This document shows, one piece after another, positions 1-59,099 of a stretch of 64,000 bases of DNA. The stretch is from Colius striatus. Taxonomy: Eukaryota; Chordata; Aves; Coliiformes; Coliidae. The notes under the pieces are model-generated. The model was not told the DNA's origin, made no database searches, and saw nothing but the letters and a program-made list of their open reading frames with translations. Location of the stretch: the NCBI RefSeq assembly GCF_028858725.1, contig NC_084773.1:10096350-10160349 (forward strand), read 5' to 3'. Position numbers and translations under genes: made by a program. The stretch's first letter is position 1. Every line of letters begins with the position of its first letter.

Positions 1-3000
1 GTGGGAACCACCTCTGCTCCAAAGGGCAGCCCAACCCCACACTACTCCAGGTGTTCACCGTCACACTCTCCCTCCTGCACACCGGTGCCAGCTGGGGGCT
101 GAGCCTGCCCTGAGTCACTTTAGCACTGAATCTGCTGATAACTAGCAGGAAACATACCATGGGTACGTTATCTGCCAGCTCAGTGTGCCAAACTGGCTTC
201 ATGCAAGGCACACCTGATGAGAGGGAGGGAGGCAGGACACGGCTGCTGATCCTTGGACTCATTTAAGTTGTGGAAATGCAAACTAAGAGAAGGTGAATGG
301 GAGCCAGGGCTGCTGGACTCTCCTTATGTGATGCCAGCAAGTTCATTACCAGGTTTCCATCTTCACTTCTTCACCTGCAGGACTGTCTCACTGTTACCAA
401 TCCATCTCTCAAGAGTGGGGAGCCTGTGACATCTGGTTTGTCAGTGCTGCCAAGACACAGCTGCAGAAGAACCTGGGACCAGTTAAAACATGGAGTGGAC
501 AAAAGAAAAGCTTTGATTAATGAAATGATGGAGAAAAAACCCTTTCAAATGCAACATGATTTCTTCGAGTGGGGAGGAAAGTATCCCCACAGCTCGGCCC
601 CAGGACTATGGGCCCTGCACATGACAGCAGTGTGTGGCGCAGAGCTTTTCCCAGTCCCAGCTGTAACAGGAGACCCACGTGCTGGGCTGTTATGAGCAGT
701 CATTCATGGTGAGTTACAGTGTCCATTGGCTGTCTTTTCCTAAAAGTTTCCTTTTGAATGTCTGTTGATACAATGTGCAAAGCAATCAAAACCCCTGTGA
801 AATTTCCTCCTTCCTCCTCTACATACCTTTGTTACACAGGCAGTAACCTCACACTAAGTTCCTGTGTCATTTGCTAGCTTTCTTGGCATGGCCAACAGCT
901 GTGTCATGCAATAGCTGTTTGTGGCAAGTTTCTCATCCTCTGTGGGAATGCAGCATTTTCTCAGACTGACGAGGCAAGATCCTGCCTGCCTTGAAGAACA
1001 TAAGACTCCTGGCACTCAGGAGGATCAGTGTCAGCAGAAAGGTCCTTGCTATCCAGGCTGGATGCCTGTCTTTTGGCACAGATGAGAGATACTTTCATTC
1101 TGCCACTGGGAATGTAAGAAGACAGTGGTAGGAGAGTGGCAAATGGAAGTACTGAGCTGTGGCTCTTGCATTTTGTCTGGCTCTATGGACATACACATGC
1201 TGCTGCCTCCATTCCACCAAAATACATGAGACCTGGGAGAAATCTGCAGTGAGCAGCCCACCACACTTACCTTCAGTAGCCTGTGAACAAAACCGTATTC
1301 CTCATCTCATCACTTGTTTGTTAATAGCAAAATCCAGTGAAAACCCATAAAAGTGGATCCATTTGAAACATGATGCCAGTCATTGCCAATCACTAAAATA
1401 ACTCTTAAGAAATTCATCCTCTGTCCTTGAGGGACCTACACACAGGTGAGCAGATCTCTAAAGTTATACTGATGGCTCTTAAGACATTTACCAGTGGAGA
1501 AACCTCAACCTATTTCAAGCACTTATCCCTCTAAACCAGGAAGGAAGAATGCCTCCAGCTTTGATTTTCTTCCCTTTGTGACATCTAACCTCTATTTACT
1601 AATCTTCTTGATCCAATTAGAGACAGTAAAACATTACATATCTTGTACTGTCTCTTTGCTTTTGTCCTTGGACAGAAAGGGACCCTCCCTTTCTCTTCTT
1701 AGTCCATGAAGTGGCACAGTGAACAGACATAAGACCCACCACCTGGTTGCTGAACTTGGAATGGCCTGCAGGGAGGTCCAGGGAGAACGTCACCTTAGCT
1801 GTGGTACCTACAAATCCTTGACATTAGCTGTGAACATCTGACATTCCCCACAGTACCTAATGCATTCACCTTTTTCTGTGGACACACAGCTACCCTGCCT
1901 TTGGCCATCTGTGGCATTACAAGCTTGGGGAGAGCCTCCTCATTCCTCTGACACTCGTCCAACATATTTCAGCTCTTCAGAGTCCTGCAAGCCCTCGTCC
2001 TCATCAATGGACACAGCTCTGGGACCCTTCTTTGCTTCTGTGCCCAGAAAGATGGAGCACCAACCCACAGTGAATGTACTGCTCAGTGACAAAAAGCTGT
2101 CCTCTCTCAACTAGCTTCCCTCTTGTCACCTCTGGCTTTCCAGAGCAGCTTCCTCAAATGATCATTATAAACATCTAACTTACTAAAATTAGAAAAGGGG
2201 AAGTAAAATGCAGTAAACACAAAGTCTCTTGCTTTTGTACTCCAAGCTTTGTCATTCTTTGATTTATCTTGTCCAAAGCAGATTCCCCCTGCTTGTGCTG
2301 GCATTTTGTTCATTAGAAACCTTCAGCTATTGCATGGCCAGGTGTGCATTTCCACTGGCAAGAGTGCAGCTGTAGTCTTTTGCCTGCCCTCTTTTCTAAT
2401 CCCTGCCAGCAGGGCAAATACTGCTCTGGTAATCTACTAATGCTTTCACCTTTGCAACCCTCAGCTGATTTCTTAGTCATCCAGCAGCAACATATGAAAG
2501 CAAAAAGCTCTGGACAAGACCAGATACCAACCATAGGAAGCAACTGCAATCATGTTATCTCACGGCAGATCTTTAATCAGACCTGCTGAGGTGCAGAGGA
2601 CATGCATATAGAACAAGGGCTTACCAGCATCTGTGCTCTCTGATAAATACAGCTGCTGGAGGGGGAACATCTAAAAAAACCAAAGCACTGATAAAGGGTC
2701 TAAATGCAGCCACTGAAGCCTCAGCCCCACACAGTGGGTTGTCCTGCAGTGCATAACTCTGCCAGGTTCTCTCCCACCAGACAAAGGAGACACAAACACC
2801 TAAAAGGAATGACTTTGGCAGTTTGATGGCTTTCCCCTGCTCAACAGTAATAGCCACAAACCACTGCAGAGCTGTGTTCCCTTAGATACTAGGAGGTGGC
2901 AATGCTGGCACCTCCCCTTAGATGCTAGCTCACACCCTGAGATGTGAAGGTCCCCATCTCTCCCTTGCTCTGCCTTTGAGTCACAACCTCCCACAGAGAC

Positions 3001-11342: not shown

Positions 11343-18542
<7,200 letters not shown>

Positions 18543-18914: not shown

Positions 18915-18920
18915 AATAAA
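18915..18920 (+). terminator. RPN1: Poly(A) signal AATAAA, proximal
   Basis: AATAAA 373 bases after the RPN1 stop codon. Confidence 0.7.
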
Positions 18921-21900: not shown

Positions 21901-23000
21901 TCACCAGGGCGCTACCAAAGCTTCTCCTGGGGCTCCCGGGCAGTCAGACAACAACTTCTCTCTCTTAGACTTCTTATGGTCCTCTAAGGGAAACTGCAGA
22001 ACTGAAGGCTCGCCCAGGAGGTCCAACCCATCCTGCAGTGGATGCTCGAACTTAGGGGATGGGGAGGAAATTGGGTTTTATAGTCAGGTGCATCGCCCCA
22101 GTCAGCCTCCTCCTGGGTGGGGATAGCCCCGTCCTATTTCTGTGCCATCCACCCTGTCCCCCCTCCCTGTGCTGACACCTCCCCTCTGCTCTACAGGGAC
22201 CAACCATTTCATTTGTTTATGTATTTATTTATTCCTCTAACCAAATAAAACTACCAGGCTGAACTGAGAGCAGATCTTGCAGGTCTGTGGTCAGCTCTGA
22301 GGGGTGCTGTGTCTCTACACCCTGAGGAAGCAAGTCCAAAAGCAAAGCTGCTTTAGGAATGCCACTTGTAGCCGCCGTGAGCCCAGGAGGTAGGGCAGGA
22401 GCAATGCCCAGCACCGTGCCAGCAGCTATGTGTCAATGCTGCCTGCTACCTCACATACGCCTGCACACCCATACATGCACCCCGCACCAGCACAGGGGGT
22501 TGGTGACCTCCCAGCTTAAACAACAGCCATGGTCTGACCCTTCACCTGTCTGTCCATGGACTCAGTGAGGCACAGCAACTGGGGAACTTGAACCTGGCAG
22601 CCACCACTCTGCAGACAGGCAGATGGATGTGCCACATGCTCTTTCACTGTGTCCCTCCATCCATGCCCAGGAGTGCTGCCTGGCTTCTAGTCTGCCCAGT
22701 CTGGCGGCTGCTCAGCACCATCTGATGGCTCTGGAGCAGTGGCCTGAGGAGCACCCAGCTGGATTGGAATCACTGCAGCATCTCACATCACCCATGGCTC
22801 CAGCTCCCTCAGCAGCACAGCATAGGCCATGTCCCAGAGCAGGACTGTGTCCCACTGGATGCCAGCACCGGGAAGAGTTCCACGTCCCCGTGGGCAGCAG
22901 TGCCAGGAGTGATGGGAGAAGGCCAAAGATCCCCACGGTGCTGGTGGGCCCACGGTGTGGCCGTGGCACCTTGGGCCTCCGCTGCCACTAGAGGCCGACA
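18971..23000. other. Intergenic sequence downstream of RPN1
   Basis: No recognisable protein gene, RNA gene or transposon. The one point of note is a CTATAAATAG element at 19908, described separately. Open frames are short and without recognised similarity. Confidence 0.5.
19908..19917. promoter_or_regulatory. CTATAAATAG element: TATA box or MEF2-type site
   Basis: CTATAAATAG fits both the TATA-box consensus (TATAAATA at 19909-19916, followed by GGCGGG) and the MEF2 consensus CTA(A/T)4TAG. The first ATG at a plausible distance downstream is at 20013; it opens a 66-codon frame with a hydrophobic start. Neither reading can be proven from sequence. Confidence 0.35.
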
Positions 23001-23011
23001 GTGCCCAGGGA

Positions 23012-23053
23012 GGCCACGCCATGCTGGCCACGCCATGCTGGCCACGCCACGCT
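23012..23053. repeat. Three tandem copies of a 14-bp unit
   Basis: GGCCACGCCATGCT is present at 23012 and 23026, and with one change (ATGCT to ACGCT) at 23040. A degenerate partial copy follows. Confidence 0.9.
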
Positions 23054-23164
23054 GGCCACCCCATCCCGCCCGGCCCCAGCCCACCGCCCGCCCTGGCACC
23101 TGGGGGACCCATTGCCCCGCCAGGCTCCTGCCCAGCCCTCACTGAGGATGCTGGCAGCATCTTT

Positions 23165-23360
23165 CTTTTTTGATTTAATTTGTTGTTTTGTTTAAATTTA
23201 TGATTGCTTCTTTCTCCCCCCCTCCCCTTCTCGCTCCTCCTCGTCCAATTTGTCTTCGAGGCTGACATGAGAGAAAACCCCAAATGACAGCGCCTGGCCG
23301 GCACAGTTTTACCACAGTATCCTGAAAAAGGCATCTGGCGAGCTGATAGTGCAGGGGGGC
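23165..23360. promoter_or_regulatory. Candidate distal enhancer with RUNX, ETS, E-box and GATA motifs
   Basis: An AT-rich then pyrimidine-rich block changes into a motif-dense segment. Between 23285 and 23349 one can read TGACAG (MEIS core, 23285), ACCACA (RUNX, 23311), ATCCTG (reverse of CAGGAT, ETS core, 23319), CATCTG (TAL1-type E-box, 23332) and TGATAG (GATA, 23344). The E-box and GATA motif are 6 bp apart, close to the spacing in known TAL1-GATA composite elements. The site lies 4.4 kb beyond the RPN1 3' end, in the interval where mammals carry the distal GATA2 haematopoietic enhancer. Orthology to that enhancer is a hypothesis; the motifs themselves are seen. Confidence 0.45.
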
Positions 23361-23600
23361 TCCGGGCGGGAGCCCCTGCCGGAAGCGGAGCGCTGGCGGC
23401 GGTTGAAGGGCCGATGCTTCAGCTTGGGCAGCAAACAGGAAACGTCCCCTGGGCCTGGGGAGCTCCTCCGGGGCTGCCCCGGGGTCTTGGGGCATAGCCG
23501 AGGCAGCTCATCCCGCTGGGGCCACGGCAGGCCCGCCGGGACCCCTGTCCTCCCTGCCCAGCCCTGCCGCCATCTTGTGCTGGGCCCCGTCTGGCACCTC
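23361..23600. promoter_or_regulatory. Small CpG-rich segment with YY1-type motif
   Basis: GC- and CpG-rich sequence following the motif cluster. At 23566-23580 it contains GCCGCCATCTTGTGC, identical over 15 bases to both YY1 motifs of the RPN1 promoter. This could mark an unannotated start site, for example of an enhancer or long non-coding RNA. No coding exon is recognised. Confidence 0.4.
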
Positions 23601-25859
23601 TGAGCTGCCTCCTCCTGCCGAGGCCAGCGGCCCTGCACACCATGGCTGGAGAAGCACTGTGGGGTCAGCGTGGGCCTCCTCTGCCGTGGCAGGCGAGACC
23701 TGGCTTTGATGGCTCTGGCTTCAGGAGATGTTCCCCACAGGTGCCACCGGCACAGAGCCCAGCCTGAAGCTGCTGCGGTGCCAGGGCTTCCAGGGGCAGT
23801 GGGCAGTATCCTCCTCCCATGGGGACACGAGGGCTACACGTGGTAGTGGCTCAGGTGGCCCAGCCACCAGCTGCAGAGCACTGCTTGGCCAGCGGCGATG
23901 CGGCTGCATCAACCCAACAGCCACGGGCTGGAGAAAGCTGCCCTCAGTGAAGAGCAACCCAATCCCACACCTCTGAGTTCGGCATGACATGGGGCACTCA
24001 AAAGAGAGGACAACCACCTAACACCTCTGAGAGCACACAGGCAGGCGGCAGAGAATCAGCAAGCTCATGGCTAAAGCAAGAGCCACACTGCACGTTGCAT
24101 CGGGTCCCTCCTCACCAACAGCAGATATTGGCCCAGGGACACAGGCTCTGCCAGCTGCCTCCATGTCATTGTGCCTCTGACCACTCAGCCCTCTCACATC
24201 CCTCTGCTCGGAACACAACTTGGTCCTCTCACACTGTCCTTCTCAGTTCCTGACTGTAGGAAGCTACTGGTCAGCCATGCAGGGCTCTGCCCTGGAGCTC
24301 ATTGTTAGGACAAGTCCTTGCTCTCAGCCAGGAACACAAGCAAAAAGGCACTTCTTGCCTTCTAGCTCTTCAACTGGCCTAGGGCTTGCTGGGCTTGGGC
24401 CAAAGATCAGAGATGCTGACTTAGCAAATGTCCTGCCAGGAGGAAATTTCCATGCTCACCGCCCACAGAACAGCACCACAGTGGCAACGGTTCAGAGTGG
24501 GGATGCAGAAGGCAATGCCCAGCAGCTCTTTGGCAAACTTGCCATGCAAAGAGAAAAAGAGACTGGTGAAGGAAGTGGCAATGAGGAGCTGGACCAGCCC
24601 CTGGGAGATGCTGCTCCTAAAGGCAGGCTGGTGCCCTCAGCCAGAGGGAGCTGCTCAAGGTGAGGGTCACATGAGGAGGAGAATTGAAGAGATGATGCTG
24701 AAAGAACAAATCCAAATGGTGTGGGGTAGCAGCAATCAGCAGGGATAAGGCGTGAGCTCAGGTATGGAGGAACAAGTGAGTACCAGCCCTGGGAAAGTAA
24801 ATTACCTGTGTACTCAAGTTCAAAAGTAAGTAATAGAGCTAGAGTATCAGAGTGAGCATCTTAACAGAGCTCCCTGTCCCACAGAAACTGGTCCCTGATA
24901 GCAAGGGCTGCTGTTCAGGATATATACCACCTGGCTTGTTTAGAAAGGAGCTGGCAGGGCAGAGCTGCAGAAGCTGAAGGCTCAGCATTGACCAGAGAAA
25001 TAAGTGTTCCTCACCTCTGAGCGAGGCTGTGGATTTTTGCATCCACCTGTGGATTCAGAACTCCTCTTTGCTTTATCCCAGCCAGCAGCCCAAGAGAACC
25101 CTGGCAAAGGGAACAGCCTCTGAGGTGGCCAGTGCAGAGCAGAAGAGCGGCCAGCTCACCCCACAGGGGCCAGAGATACGGGAGGAGGATGCACATCCCA
25201 TGAGCGGTAAGCAGGGCTTGTACCCTGCCTGCCTCCCTCCCTCCTCCCCCACCGCTGCGGTTCCTGTGCCCGCAGTGCCCCCTGCCTTCACTGGCACAGG
25301 CCAGGCCATGTCCCAGGACAGCTGTGCCCTCAACATCTGGTGTAGCTTCAGCCTTGGGGCATCCTGGTGCTGGAGGAGCGGAGCCCGCAGGAGGTGTTGC
25401 TGCCTTTGGGGTACCGGGTGCCTGTGCCACGGAGTGTCTCTCAATAGCAGCTTTATGAACAGGCAAATCTGCTGGAGCGCAGTGCTGAAACTTGCTGAAG
25501 ACTTGCAAGTGCACCTTAGTTTTCTTGCCTTGCATTCAGCATCCCCGGTTGTCCCAGCAGCCCGGTGAGGGGACAGGCGCAGGTGAGGCAGACGGGCGCT
25601 GCACACCCTGGCCTCGCAGCTCCTGCCACATGGACTGTGGGCTGCTTGCAGGATTCTGTCACCCACCTGGTGGTGCCTGGGGCCGTGCTCCTGAACCTCC
25701 TCCTCCTCCACACCACGGGAGTCTTGCAGCAGCTCTGCATGTGCTTGCAGCCTGCCCGTCCACGCAGACCCACAGGGAGGCGAGAGGGAAACCAAACTAG
25801 GAAGGGGCTGAAAAAGAAAATGCCTCTCCCTGACTACCCAGCCTAGGGGAGGGAAAAGT
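23601..25859. other. Intergenic sequence, nothing recognised
   Basis: No exon with similarity I can name, no transposon and no tandem array. Open frames on both strands overlap one another and look like chance. Confidence 0.5.
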
Positions 25860-56689: not shown

Positions 56690-57130
56690 ACTTTTCATCA
56701 GCTGCTAATCATGATTTTTTTATTGCTTTGCTTAGCATTTTCTGGGGAATAAAACCTCAGAGGAGCCCAGTCTTTTGTGGAAAATGAAAGGGCATATAAA
56801 AAAATGAATGTACATGGATTCTAAATATTTCAGGTTGTATGACTTTGTGTTTGACCTTAGCAGAAGATGAACTAATCCTGCAATATAATAGACTTTCATA
56901 GAGATATGGAAAATGGCTGCTTTTTTATCTCAGTTGCCATGGGAACCATCAGAGAGAAGGCCTAGCTGAGATGCAATAGAAGGTTATTAAATGTGTGCTT
57001 GTGTATATTGGAAAAATACAGCTTTTTGTCATCTTGTGTCACTCATAGGTCTTTAATACGTAATGTTTAGGTTATTAATAAACTAACACAGGTCCATTTT
57101 TTACAGGGAACAACTGTGAATACCGCCATA
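56690..57130. promoter_or_regulatory. AT-rich candidate conserved non-coding block
   Basis: About 440 bp of AT-rich, non-repetitive sequence, unlike the flanks. It includes CTGCTAATCATGATT near 56702 and TTATCTCAGTTG (GATA motif next to an E-box/MYB-like word) at 56935. It resembles deeply conserved enhancers in composition; conservation is not tested here. Confidence 0.3.
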
Positions 57131-58504: not shown

Positions 58505-58740
58505 TTGCCTATCTGCCGATCAAACGCGGAGATCTGCTCTGGTAAATGATGCATTAGATGCGGTGGCTGTATTTGTTGTGTGAGTTTTGAAAGGGTTCCG
58601 ATAATCTGGAAGCGAGAGATAAGGAACACCATTTATTCAGCAGCACTTTGGAACCAATTTTCAACCCTGTTCAACCCCATTCTCCAGCAGCCTCCAGGAG
58701 CCCAGGAGATAAGGATTGGGCTATTCATTATCTTCACAAG
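58505..58740. promoter_or_regulatory. GATA motif cluster (four sites in 225 bp)
   Basis: CTATCT at 58509, AGATAA at 58617, AGATAA at 58707 and TTATCT at 58728. The last two face each other at 15 bp spacing. The block is AT-balanced and lies just upstream of the CpG-island complex, the position expected for proximal upstream GATA switch elements if GATA2 follows. Confidence 0.45.
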
Positions 58741-59099
58741 GAACAAAGATTAGCTAGCAGAGATGAAAAATTACCCCTGGATAGTAATAATAAGGAAGCG
58801 AACCTGGAGAGTTGCTGAGCCTATATTCTCCCTGCTGCTGGTGCTGCTTCTTCTCTTTTTAAATTCTCTCCCCCTCTTTTTTTGTTGAATCAATATAGAA
58901 AAGGTTGGTTCGTTTTCTTTTTTAAAGGAAAAAAAAAAAGCCACCCCAGCCTTCCCCAGCGTCTCTCATATTTTTCAATACGCAGAATATGGTTGTTACC
59001 GTGGAACAGAGCAGAGAACGGTCCCCCCTTCCTCCCAGACTTTCAGATGACATCTTTAGTACGAAAGCTAAAACAGCAGAGGAAAACATCTTTCTCTTC

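What the first reader, a model, noticed from the sequence alone, without database searches (positions are those of the whole stretch)
23285..23349. RUNX-ETS-E-box-GATA cluster 4.4 kb downstream of RPN1: candidate avian counterpart of the distal GATA2 enhancer
Seen: MEIS core (TGACAG), RUNX (ACCACA), ETS core (ATCCTG), TAL1-type E-box CATCTG and TGATAG packed in 65 bp, with the E-box and GATA site 6 bp apart. Known: this motif set is the signature of blood stem-cell enhancers, and the mammalian RPN1-GATA2 interval holds the -77 (mouse) / -110 (human) GATA2 enhancer, which inv(3)/t(3;3) leukaemias redirect to MECOM. Inferred: this is the bird version, brought closer by genome compaction.
Basis: partly seen in the sequence, partly recalled or inferred. 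Interest (0 to 1): 0.75.

Follow-up and report, generated by a model that had tools for sequence, protein, structure and literature searches.

The report
Possible bird blood-cell GATA2 enhancer
Between the bird genes RPN1 and GATA2 lies a short, single-copy stretch packed with docking sites for blood-cell regulators, at roughly the place where mammals keep a key GATA2 switch; whether it is the same switch could not be tested here.

Summary
The host is a bird. RPN1 ends at 18.54 kb, and the GATA2 start codon lies 4.4 kb beyond the window on the same strand, about 45 kb from the cluster. A published GATA2 blood enhancer, Up2, is recognisable at about 58.54-58.78 kb, and a weaker match to its neighbour Up1 at 56.85 kb. 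The cluster is unlikely to be pure chance: the five exact motifs recur in 1 of 700 shuffles, a looser version in 12, a nine-class version in 32. It is single-copy and next to a local drop in G+C. Against the reading: the E-box-GATA spacing is 6-7 bp where blood enhancers favour about 9; the motif order does not follow the two-module layout of the human enhancer; and at enhancer scale other stretches of the interval are richer in the same motifs. No mammalian -77/-110 sequence and no second bird was available, so orthology is untested. I read it as a plausible blood-type GATA2 enhancer core, possibly the -77/-110 counterpart: a candidate member of a known kind, not a demonstrated one.

The parts
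23285..23349 (+). Motif cluster: MEIS TGACAG 23285, CAGTT (AACTG core) 23304, RUNX ACCACA 23311 (overlapped by a C/EBP-like TTACCACA 23309), ETS-type ATCCTG 23319, E-box CATCTG 23332, TGATAG 23344
   Evidence: chance controls; genome-wide RUNX/E-box/GATA count
23332..23349 (+). E-box-spacer-WGATAR composite, 6-bp spacer
   Evidence: 6-14 bp definition from PMC10065080 passages; ~9 bp preference from PMC4267662 passages
23151..23350 (.). Single-copy segment of low G+C (0.46) between flanks of 0.68 that contains the cluster; the likely extent of the element. The drop is mostly a T-rich run at 23161-23260 (0.39); the cluster itself is 0.54
   Evidence: G+C; single copy; no Pfam domain; no Rfam match
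23400..23442 (.). Possible outlying sites: MYB-type CGGTTG 23400 and ETS-type AGGAAA 23437
22985..22997 (+). CTCF-like site CCACTAGAGGCCG (12 of 13 to a recalled consensus), one of two in the RPN1-GATA2 interval; 8 such sites in 200 kb of background DNA
11400..18542 (+). RPN1 coding exons (start approximate, read from ORFs); stop codon 18540-18542
56850..56953 (+). Weaker match to zebrafish GATA2 conserved element Up1: primer ends match 18 of 24 and 17 of 20 bases in the right order and orientation; 104 bp apart, where the fish element is given as 82 bp
   Evidence: (E 0.45 and 0.062 singly); primer sequences from PMC1988811
58544..58777 (+). Match to the zebrafish/mammal GATA2 haematopoietic enhancer Up2: two pieces by BLAST, the 3' primer end (15 of 16 bases), and a 10-base 5' piece and RUNX-type piece found by eye, all in order
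   Evidence: (E 1.8e-5, 5.3e-5, 0.062)

Best explanation
The segment 23151-23350, with the 65-bp cluster as its core, is a distal blood-type enhancer of GATA2 and a candidate counterpart of the mammalian -77/-110 element. Shown: position, motif content, single copy, local drop in G+C. Inferred: a GATA2 (later GATA1)-TAL1-LMO2-LDB1 complex binds the E-box/GATA pair; RUNX1 and an ETS factor bind the adjacent sites; MEIS/PBX binds the outer site. Together they recruit p300 and loop about 45 kb to the GATA2 promoters, giving self-sustaining GATA2 expression in progenitors and silencing when GATA1 replaces GATA2.
For: Cluster real and unusual: 1, 12 and 32 of 700 shuffles for the exact, loose and nine-class tests; 0 exact and 0 loose five-class clusters in 200 kb of real DNA of the same contig. 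RUNX + CATCTG + WGATAR in this order and spacing range: 108 sites in 1.21 Gb, at least 14 of them in one repeat family, so about 0.004 expected in the 49.8-kb interval for this order alone. Locus: GATA2 ATG at window coordinate 68367, + strand; Up2 and, more weakly, Up1 in order. The distal mammalian element lies close to Rpn1. CEBPA, FLI1, MYB and RUNX1 sites matter in the human enhancer, and TAL1 and GATA2 motifs lie in one of its modules. Independent of motifs: in 18.7-60 kb, 23161-23260 is the deepest 100-bp G+C dip and 23151-23350 the second deepest 200-bp dip. Single-copy.
Against: No homology test possible. E-box-GATA spacing 6-7 bp against the preferred ~9. In the human core, MYB/RUNX1/CEBPA motifs are centromeric (GATA2 side, by recalled map order) and PU.1/GATA2/TAL1/IKZF1 telomeric; here RUNX is on the RPN1 side and E-box/GATA on the GATA2 side, and no PU.1 or IKZF consensus was found in 23100-23900. 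By motif richness the segment ranks 6th at 150 bp and is outside the 12 listed at 400 and 755 bp. Looser tests are weak or null: four classes within 50 bp in 53 of 700, five-of-nine in 463 of 700; motif choice was post hoc. The G+C dip is mostly the T-rich run beside the cluster, and Up1 and Up2 themselves dip by only about 0.11-0.12, so the dip is a weak sign.
Confidence: 0.36

Rival explanations
1. A chance concentration of short motifs in a compositionally odd, non-regulatory stretch of a GC-rich region; a reader who knows blood motifs will find such a block somewhere.
For: Five-of-nine classes within 65 bp occur in 463 of 700 shuffles, four classes within 50 bp in 53, six-of-nine in 32 and once in 200 kb of real DNA. 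CATCTG-N6-TGATAG alone occurs 208 times in the genome. Not among the 12 richest stretches at 400 or 755 bp. The G+C dip is largely a T-rich run.
Against: The exact and loose five-class tests are rarer (1 and 12 of 700), and the place fits the known distal element.
Confidence: 0.34
2. A real regulatory element of GATA2 (or RPN1), but not the -77/-110 counterpart: for example an endothelial, neural or urogenital GATA2 enhancer, or a boundary-linked element with the CTCF-like site 288 bp upstream.
For: GATA2 has other tissue enhancers, neural ones among them (PMC10335940 abstract and passages); TAL1/GATA pairs are also used in neurons (recalled). G+C dip and single copy fit any conserved element. 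CTCF-like site nearby.
Against: A RUNX site next to E-box/GATA is most typical of blood enhancers (recalled; 'GATA + Runt' pairs enriched in progenitors, erythroid and myeloid cells in PMC4267662 passages). The neural cRE1-3 lie 3' of GATA2, on its other side.
Confidence: 0.2
3. The true -77/-110 counterpart lies elsewhere in the interval (for example near 26.8-27.5, 33.4-34.1, 44.9-45.6 or 48.0-48.7 kb), or has been lost in birds.
For: These stretches score higher for the same motif set at 755 bp; 33500 holds five of seven blood classes (ETS, E-box, GATA, MYB, C/EBP) within 65 bp. No mammalian sequence was available to place the orthologue.
Confidence: 0.1

Closest known systems
Mammalian GATA2 distal haematopoietic enhancer (G2DHE; mouse -77 kb, human -110 kb)
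   Same: Between RPN1 and GATA2, close to RPN1; RUNX, ETS-type, E-box and GATA motifs
   Different: Human core is 755 bp and bimodular with MYB/RUNX1/CEBPA and PU.1/GATA2/TAL1/IKZF1 modules (PMC8550965 passages); here the motifs sit in 65 bp, in a different order and without PU.1/IKZF consensus. Sequence homology untested. Distance to GATA2 ATG 45 kb.
GATA2 +9.5 (intron 4/i4) enhancer
   Same: E-box/GATA composite with ETS-type sites
   Different: Intronic and with ~9 bp spacing (PMC7018942 passages). In this bird the likely +9.5 core, near extended coordinate 73.4 kb, reads TATCTG-N8-AGATAAGGAAA (my identification, not tested); the strict composite scan missed it.
GATA2 Up2 haematopoietic enhancer (zebrafish/mammal)
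   Same: Blood enhancer upstream of GATA2 with RUNX-type, GATA and other sites
   Different: Found separately in this window at 58544-58777.

Membership tests
GATA2 distal haematopoietic enhancer (-77/-110) | Lies between RPN1 and GATA2, nearer RPN1, same synteny | tested here: met
   RPN1 stop 18542, GATA2 ATG 68367, cluster at 9.5% of the interval
GATA2 distal haematopoietic enhancer (-77/-110) | Sequence homology to the mammalian core | not testable with these tools
   No mammalian or second avian sequence held; one exact-pattern scan each of the viral and prokaryote collections gave 0, as expected
GATA2 distal haematopoietic enhancer (-77/-110) | Two modules: MYB/RUNX1/CEBPA and PU.1/GATA2/TAL1/IKZF1 over about 755 bp | tested here: inconclusive
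   RUNX, C/EBP-like, E-box, GATA, ETS-type and one MYB site present, but intermixed; no PU.1 or IKZF consensus in 23100-23900; not among the 12 richest stretches at 755 bp. Consensus scans only
GATA2 distal haematopoietic enhancer (-77/-110) | p300/GATA2/RUNX1 occupancy and GATA2 loss on deletion in progenitors | not testable with these tools
   No chromatin or functional data
E-box-spacer-WGATAR composite element | E-box followed by WGATAR with 6-14 bp spacer | tested here: met
   CATCTG-6-TGATAG; definition
E-box-spacer-WGATAR composite element | Preferred spacing of about 9 bp for the TAL1/GATA complex | tested here: not met
   6 bp to WGATAR, 7 bp to GATA; preference from PMC4267662 passages
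Up2 haematopoietic enhancer | Collinear match to published zebrafish Up2 pieces | tested here: not met
   The significant matches fall at 58627-58737, not at 23.3 kb

The most novel reading that the evidence does not exclude
Birds keep the -77/-110 GATA2 blood enhancer next to RPN1 in compressed form: the binding sites that mammals spread over two modules and 755 bp sit in one 65-bp block about 45 kb from GATA2, with a shortened E-box-GATA spacing and a changed site order. That would be a natural test of how much grammar this leukaemia-hijacked enhancer needs.
Probability: 0.22. Interest if true: 0.6.

Novelty: new member of a known kind. Interest (0 to 1): 0.35.

Why it matters
The -77/-110 enhancer sustains GATA2 in blood progenitors, and its relocation to MECOM drives inv(3)/t(3;3) leukaemia. 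An avian counterpart would show which sites are ancestral and offer a compact version for dissecting spacing and order rules in chick embryos. If it is not the counterpart, the region is still a GATA2 upstream landscape in which Up2, and probably Up1, are now placed.

Tried and rejected
Coding explanation: the five ORFs of at least 60 aa that cross the cluster have no Pfam match at E 0.1 (three, two) and are expected in GC-rich DNA; rejected.
RNA gene: no Rfam family at gathering score in 18-64 kb.
Repeat or transposon: only the window's own copy in the genome; a 14-bp tandem array lies nearby at 23012-23064.
GATA2 or RAB7A coding exons in the window: none found; the weak tblastn hits were discarded as noise.
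CR1-tail pattern as a bird marker: no hit; the beta-keratin family was used instead.
Ranking the interval by motif density was unfavourable to the candidate and is kept as evidence against.
Genome-wide counts for other E-box-GATA spacers: not run.
Changed on re-checking: the Up1 match is now called weaker (spacing is not shown to be right), the Up2 start is moved to 58544, and the G+C dip is told to be mostly the T-rich run beside the cluster; for the last reason I lowered the best explanation from 0.38 to 0.36 and raised the chance rival from 0.32 to 0.34.

Full report
The observation. The E-box and TGATAG are 6 bp apart. An AACTG core (as CAGTT, 23304) lies between the MEIS and RUNX sites but lacks the pyrimidine of a full MYB consensus; within 23100-23900 the only YAACNG match is at 23400.

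Chance. In 700 local dinucleotide shuffles of the window, all five exact motifs within 65 bp arose in 1, four of them in 29, the five classes with looser motifs in 12, four classes within 50 bp in 53, six of nine classes in 32, and five of nine in 463. An earlier run of 60 shuffles gave the loose five within 65 bp in 0 and within 100 bp in 1, six of seven classes within 65 bp in 1 and within 100 bp in 16. In 200 kb of real DNA from 20 places on the same contig there were 0 exact and 0 loose five-class clusters, 2 four-class clusters within 50 bp and 1 six-of-nine cluster; that sample has lower G+C (0.438) than the window (0.544). Genome-wide, ACCACA-N5-40-CATCTG-N5-10-WGATAR occurs 108 times in 1.21 Gb; among the 100 places listed, 14 belong to one repeat family on contigs 19, 20 and 22, and the cluster is one. 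The expectation in the 49.8-kb RPN1-GATA2 interval is about 0.004 for that order alone, and several times more if other orders are allowed. CATCTG-N6-TGATAG by itself is common: 208 sites. So the cluster is unusual, but motif choice was made after seeing it, and the evidence is moderate.

Locus. The genome is 1.21 Gb, with the window on contig 17; 150 scored matches to the beta-keratin family and the genome size point to a bird (my inference). RPN1 is on the + strand and its last exon matches residues 549-607 of the 607-residue solved protein, with the stop at 18540-18542 and AATAAA at 18915 and 18943. No GATA2 coding exon is in the window; the start codon lies at extended coordinate 68367 and the zinc-finger exons at 72.5 and 75.65 kb, + strand. 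GATA2 5' untranslated exons could still lie in the last kilobases of the window; I did not map them. The cluster is 4.7 kb from the RPN1 stop and 45.0 kb from the GATA2 start codon, 9.5% of the way across.

Known elements in the same interval. Sequences of the zebrafish GATA2 upstream elements were taken from primers in PMC1988811 (I read parts 1 and 2 of 6 and passages). Two Up2 pieces match at 58627-58666 and 58708-58737 with E 1.8e-5 and 5.3e-5, and the 3' primer end at 58762-58777 with 15 of 16 bases (E 0.062). The 5' piece (58544-58553) and the RUNX-type piece were not among the BLAST hits and were found by eye in the right order. Both Up1 primer ends match at 56850-56953 in the right order and orientation, 18 of 24 and 17 of 20 bases, but singly with E 0.45 and 0.062 and 104 bp apart against a stated fish element of 82 bp, so Up1 is likely rather than sure. 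Up2 is the element reported in that paper as necessary and sufficient for haematopoietic GFP in zebrafish and active in human myeloid cell lines.

A motif-free sign, weak. In 18.7-60 kb, 23161-23260 is the deepest 100-bp drop in G+C and 23151-23350 the second deepest 200-bp drop. Drops this deep were seen 3 times (100 bp) and 2 times (200 bp) in 200 kb of background DNA; in the extended sequence there are 11 of the 200-bp kind, of which the cluster's is the only one between 12.1 and 56.6 kb and most of the rest lie in the GATA2 5' region. Two cautions: the deepest part is a T-rich run that precedes the cluster (G+C 0.39; the cluster itself is 0.54), and Up1 and Up2 themselves dip by only about 0.11-0.12, though deeper dips adjoin or partly overlap them. 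The segment is single-copy, without a Pfam match in the five ORFs that cross the cluster and without an Rfam match.

Against the -77/-110 reading. The TAL1/GATA pair prefers about 9 bp (PMC4267662 passages); here it is 7 to the GATA core, though within the 6-14 bp range used for composites (PMC10065080 passages). The human core is 755 bp in two modules, MYB/RUNX1/CEBPA centromeric and PU.1/GATA2/TAL1/IKZF1 telomeric (PMC8550965 passages); with GATA2 on the centromeric side (recalled map order) the order here is the reverse and the sites are intermixed. At 150 bp the segment ranks sixth by motif richness and at 400 and 755 bp it is outside the twelve listed. The strict composite scan also found CATCTG-N7-TGATAA at 2628, on the far side of RPN1, and a CAGATG-N12-TGATAG beyond GATA2, and it missed the probable +9.5 core in the GATA2 intron, so that scan neither singles out the cluster nor excludes other elements. 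I could not obtain the mouse or human core or any other bird; one pattern scan each of the viral and prokaryote collections gave nothing, as expected.

Mechanism. If functional, the most likely working is combinatorial binding of a GATA2-TAL1-LMO2-LDB1 complex with RUNX1, an ETS factor and MEIS, p300 recruitment and looping to GATA2. Every step of this is inferred from established knowledge of blood enhancers and of the mammalian element (PMC4409096, PMC7793295, PMC10550934 and PMC12628035 passages), none shown here.

Novelty. A counterpart in birds would be a new member of a known kind. My searches that named chicken, avian or chick terms listed no paper whose title or abstract start describes it. 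They cover only openly licensed papers; one search listed 20 of 33 and one search was unspecific (4,516 papers, 15 listed). From these lists I opened only PMC1988811, PMC6972633 and PMC6484780 (passages or parts); of the rest I saw listings.

Noticed in passing
window 58544-58777 (+): Match to the deeply conserved GATA2 haematopoietic enhancer Up2 (zebrafish to mammals): two significant BLAST pieces plus weaker pieces in order; the best-supported blood enhancer found in the window.
   Followed up: yes
window 56850-56953 (+): Weaker match to both ends of the conserved GATA2 upstream element Up1 (heart expression in zebrafish reporters).
   Followed up: partly
window 22985-22997 (+): CTCF-like site (12 of 13 positions of a recalled consensus) 288 bp before the cluster; only one other (40532, -) in the RPN1-GATA2 interval at this stringency.
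   Followed up: partly
extended coordinate about 73390-73420, beyond the window in the GATA2 intron between the two zinc-finger exons: Probable avian +9.5 enhancer core: TATCTG-N8-AGATAAGGAAA, so the E-box's first base differs from the canonical CATCTG (my identification, not tested).
   Followed up: partly
window 2628-2646 (+): A second CATCTG-N7-TGATAA composite, upstream of RPN1.
   Followed up: no
   Followed up: partly
contigs 19, 20 and 22 of the genome: A repeat family carries ACCACA...CATCTG...TGATAG in 14 near-identical copies among the 100 places listed.
   Followed up: no
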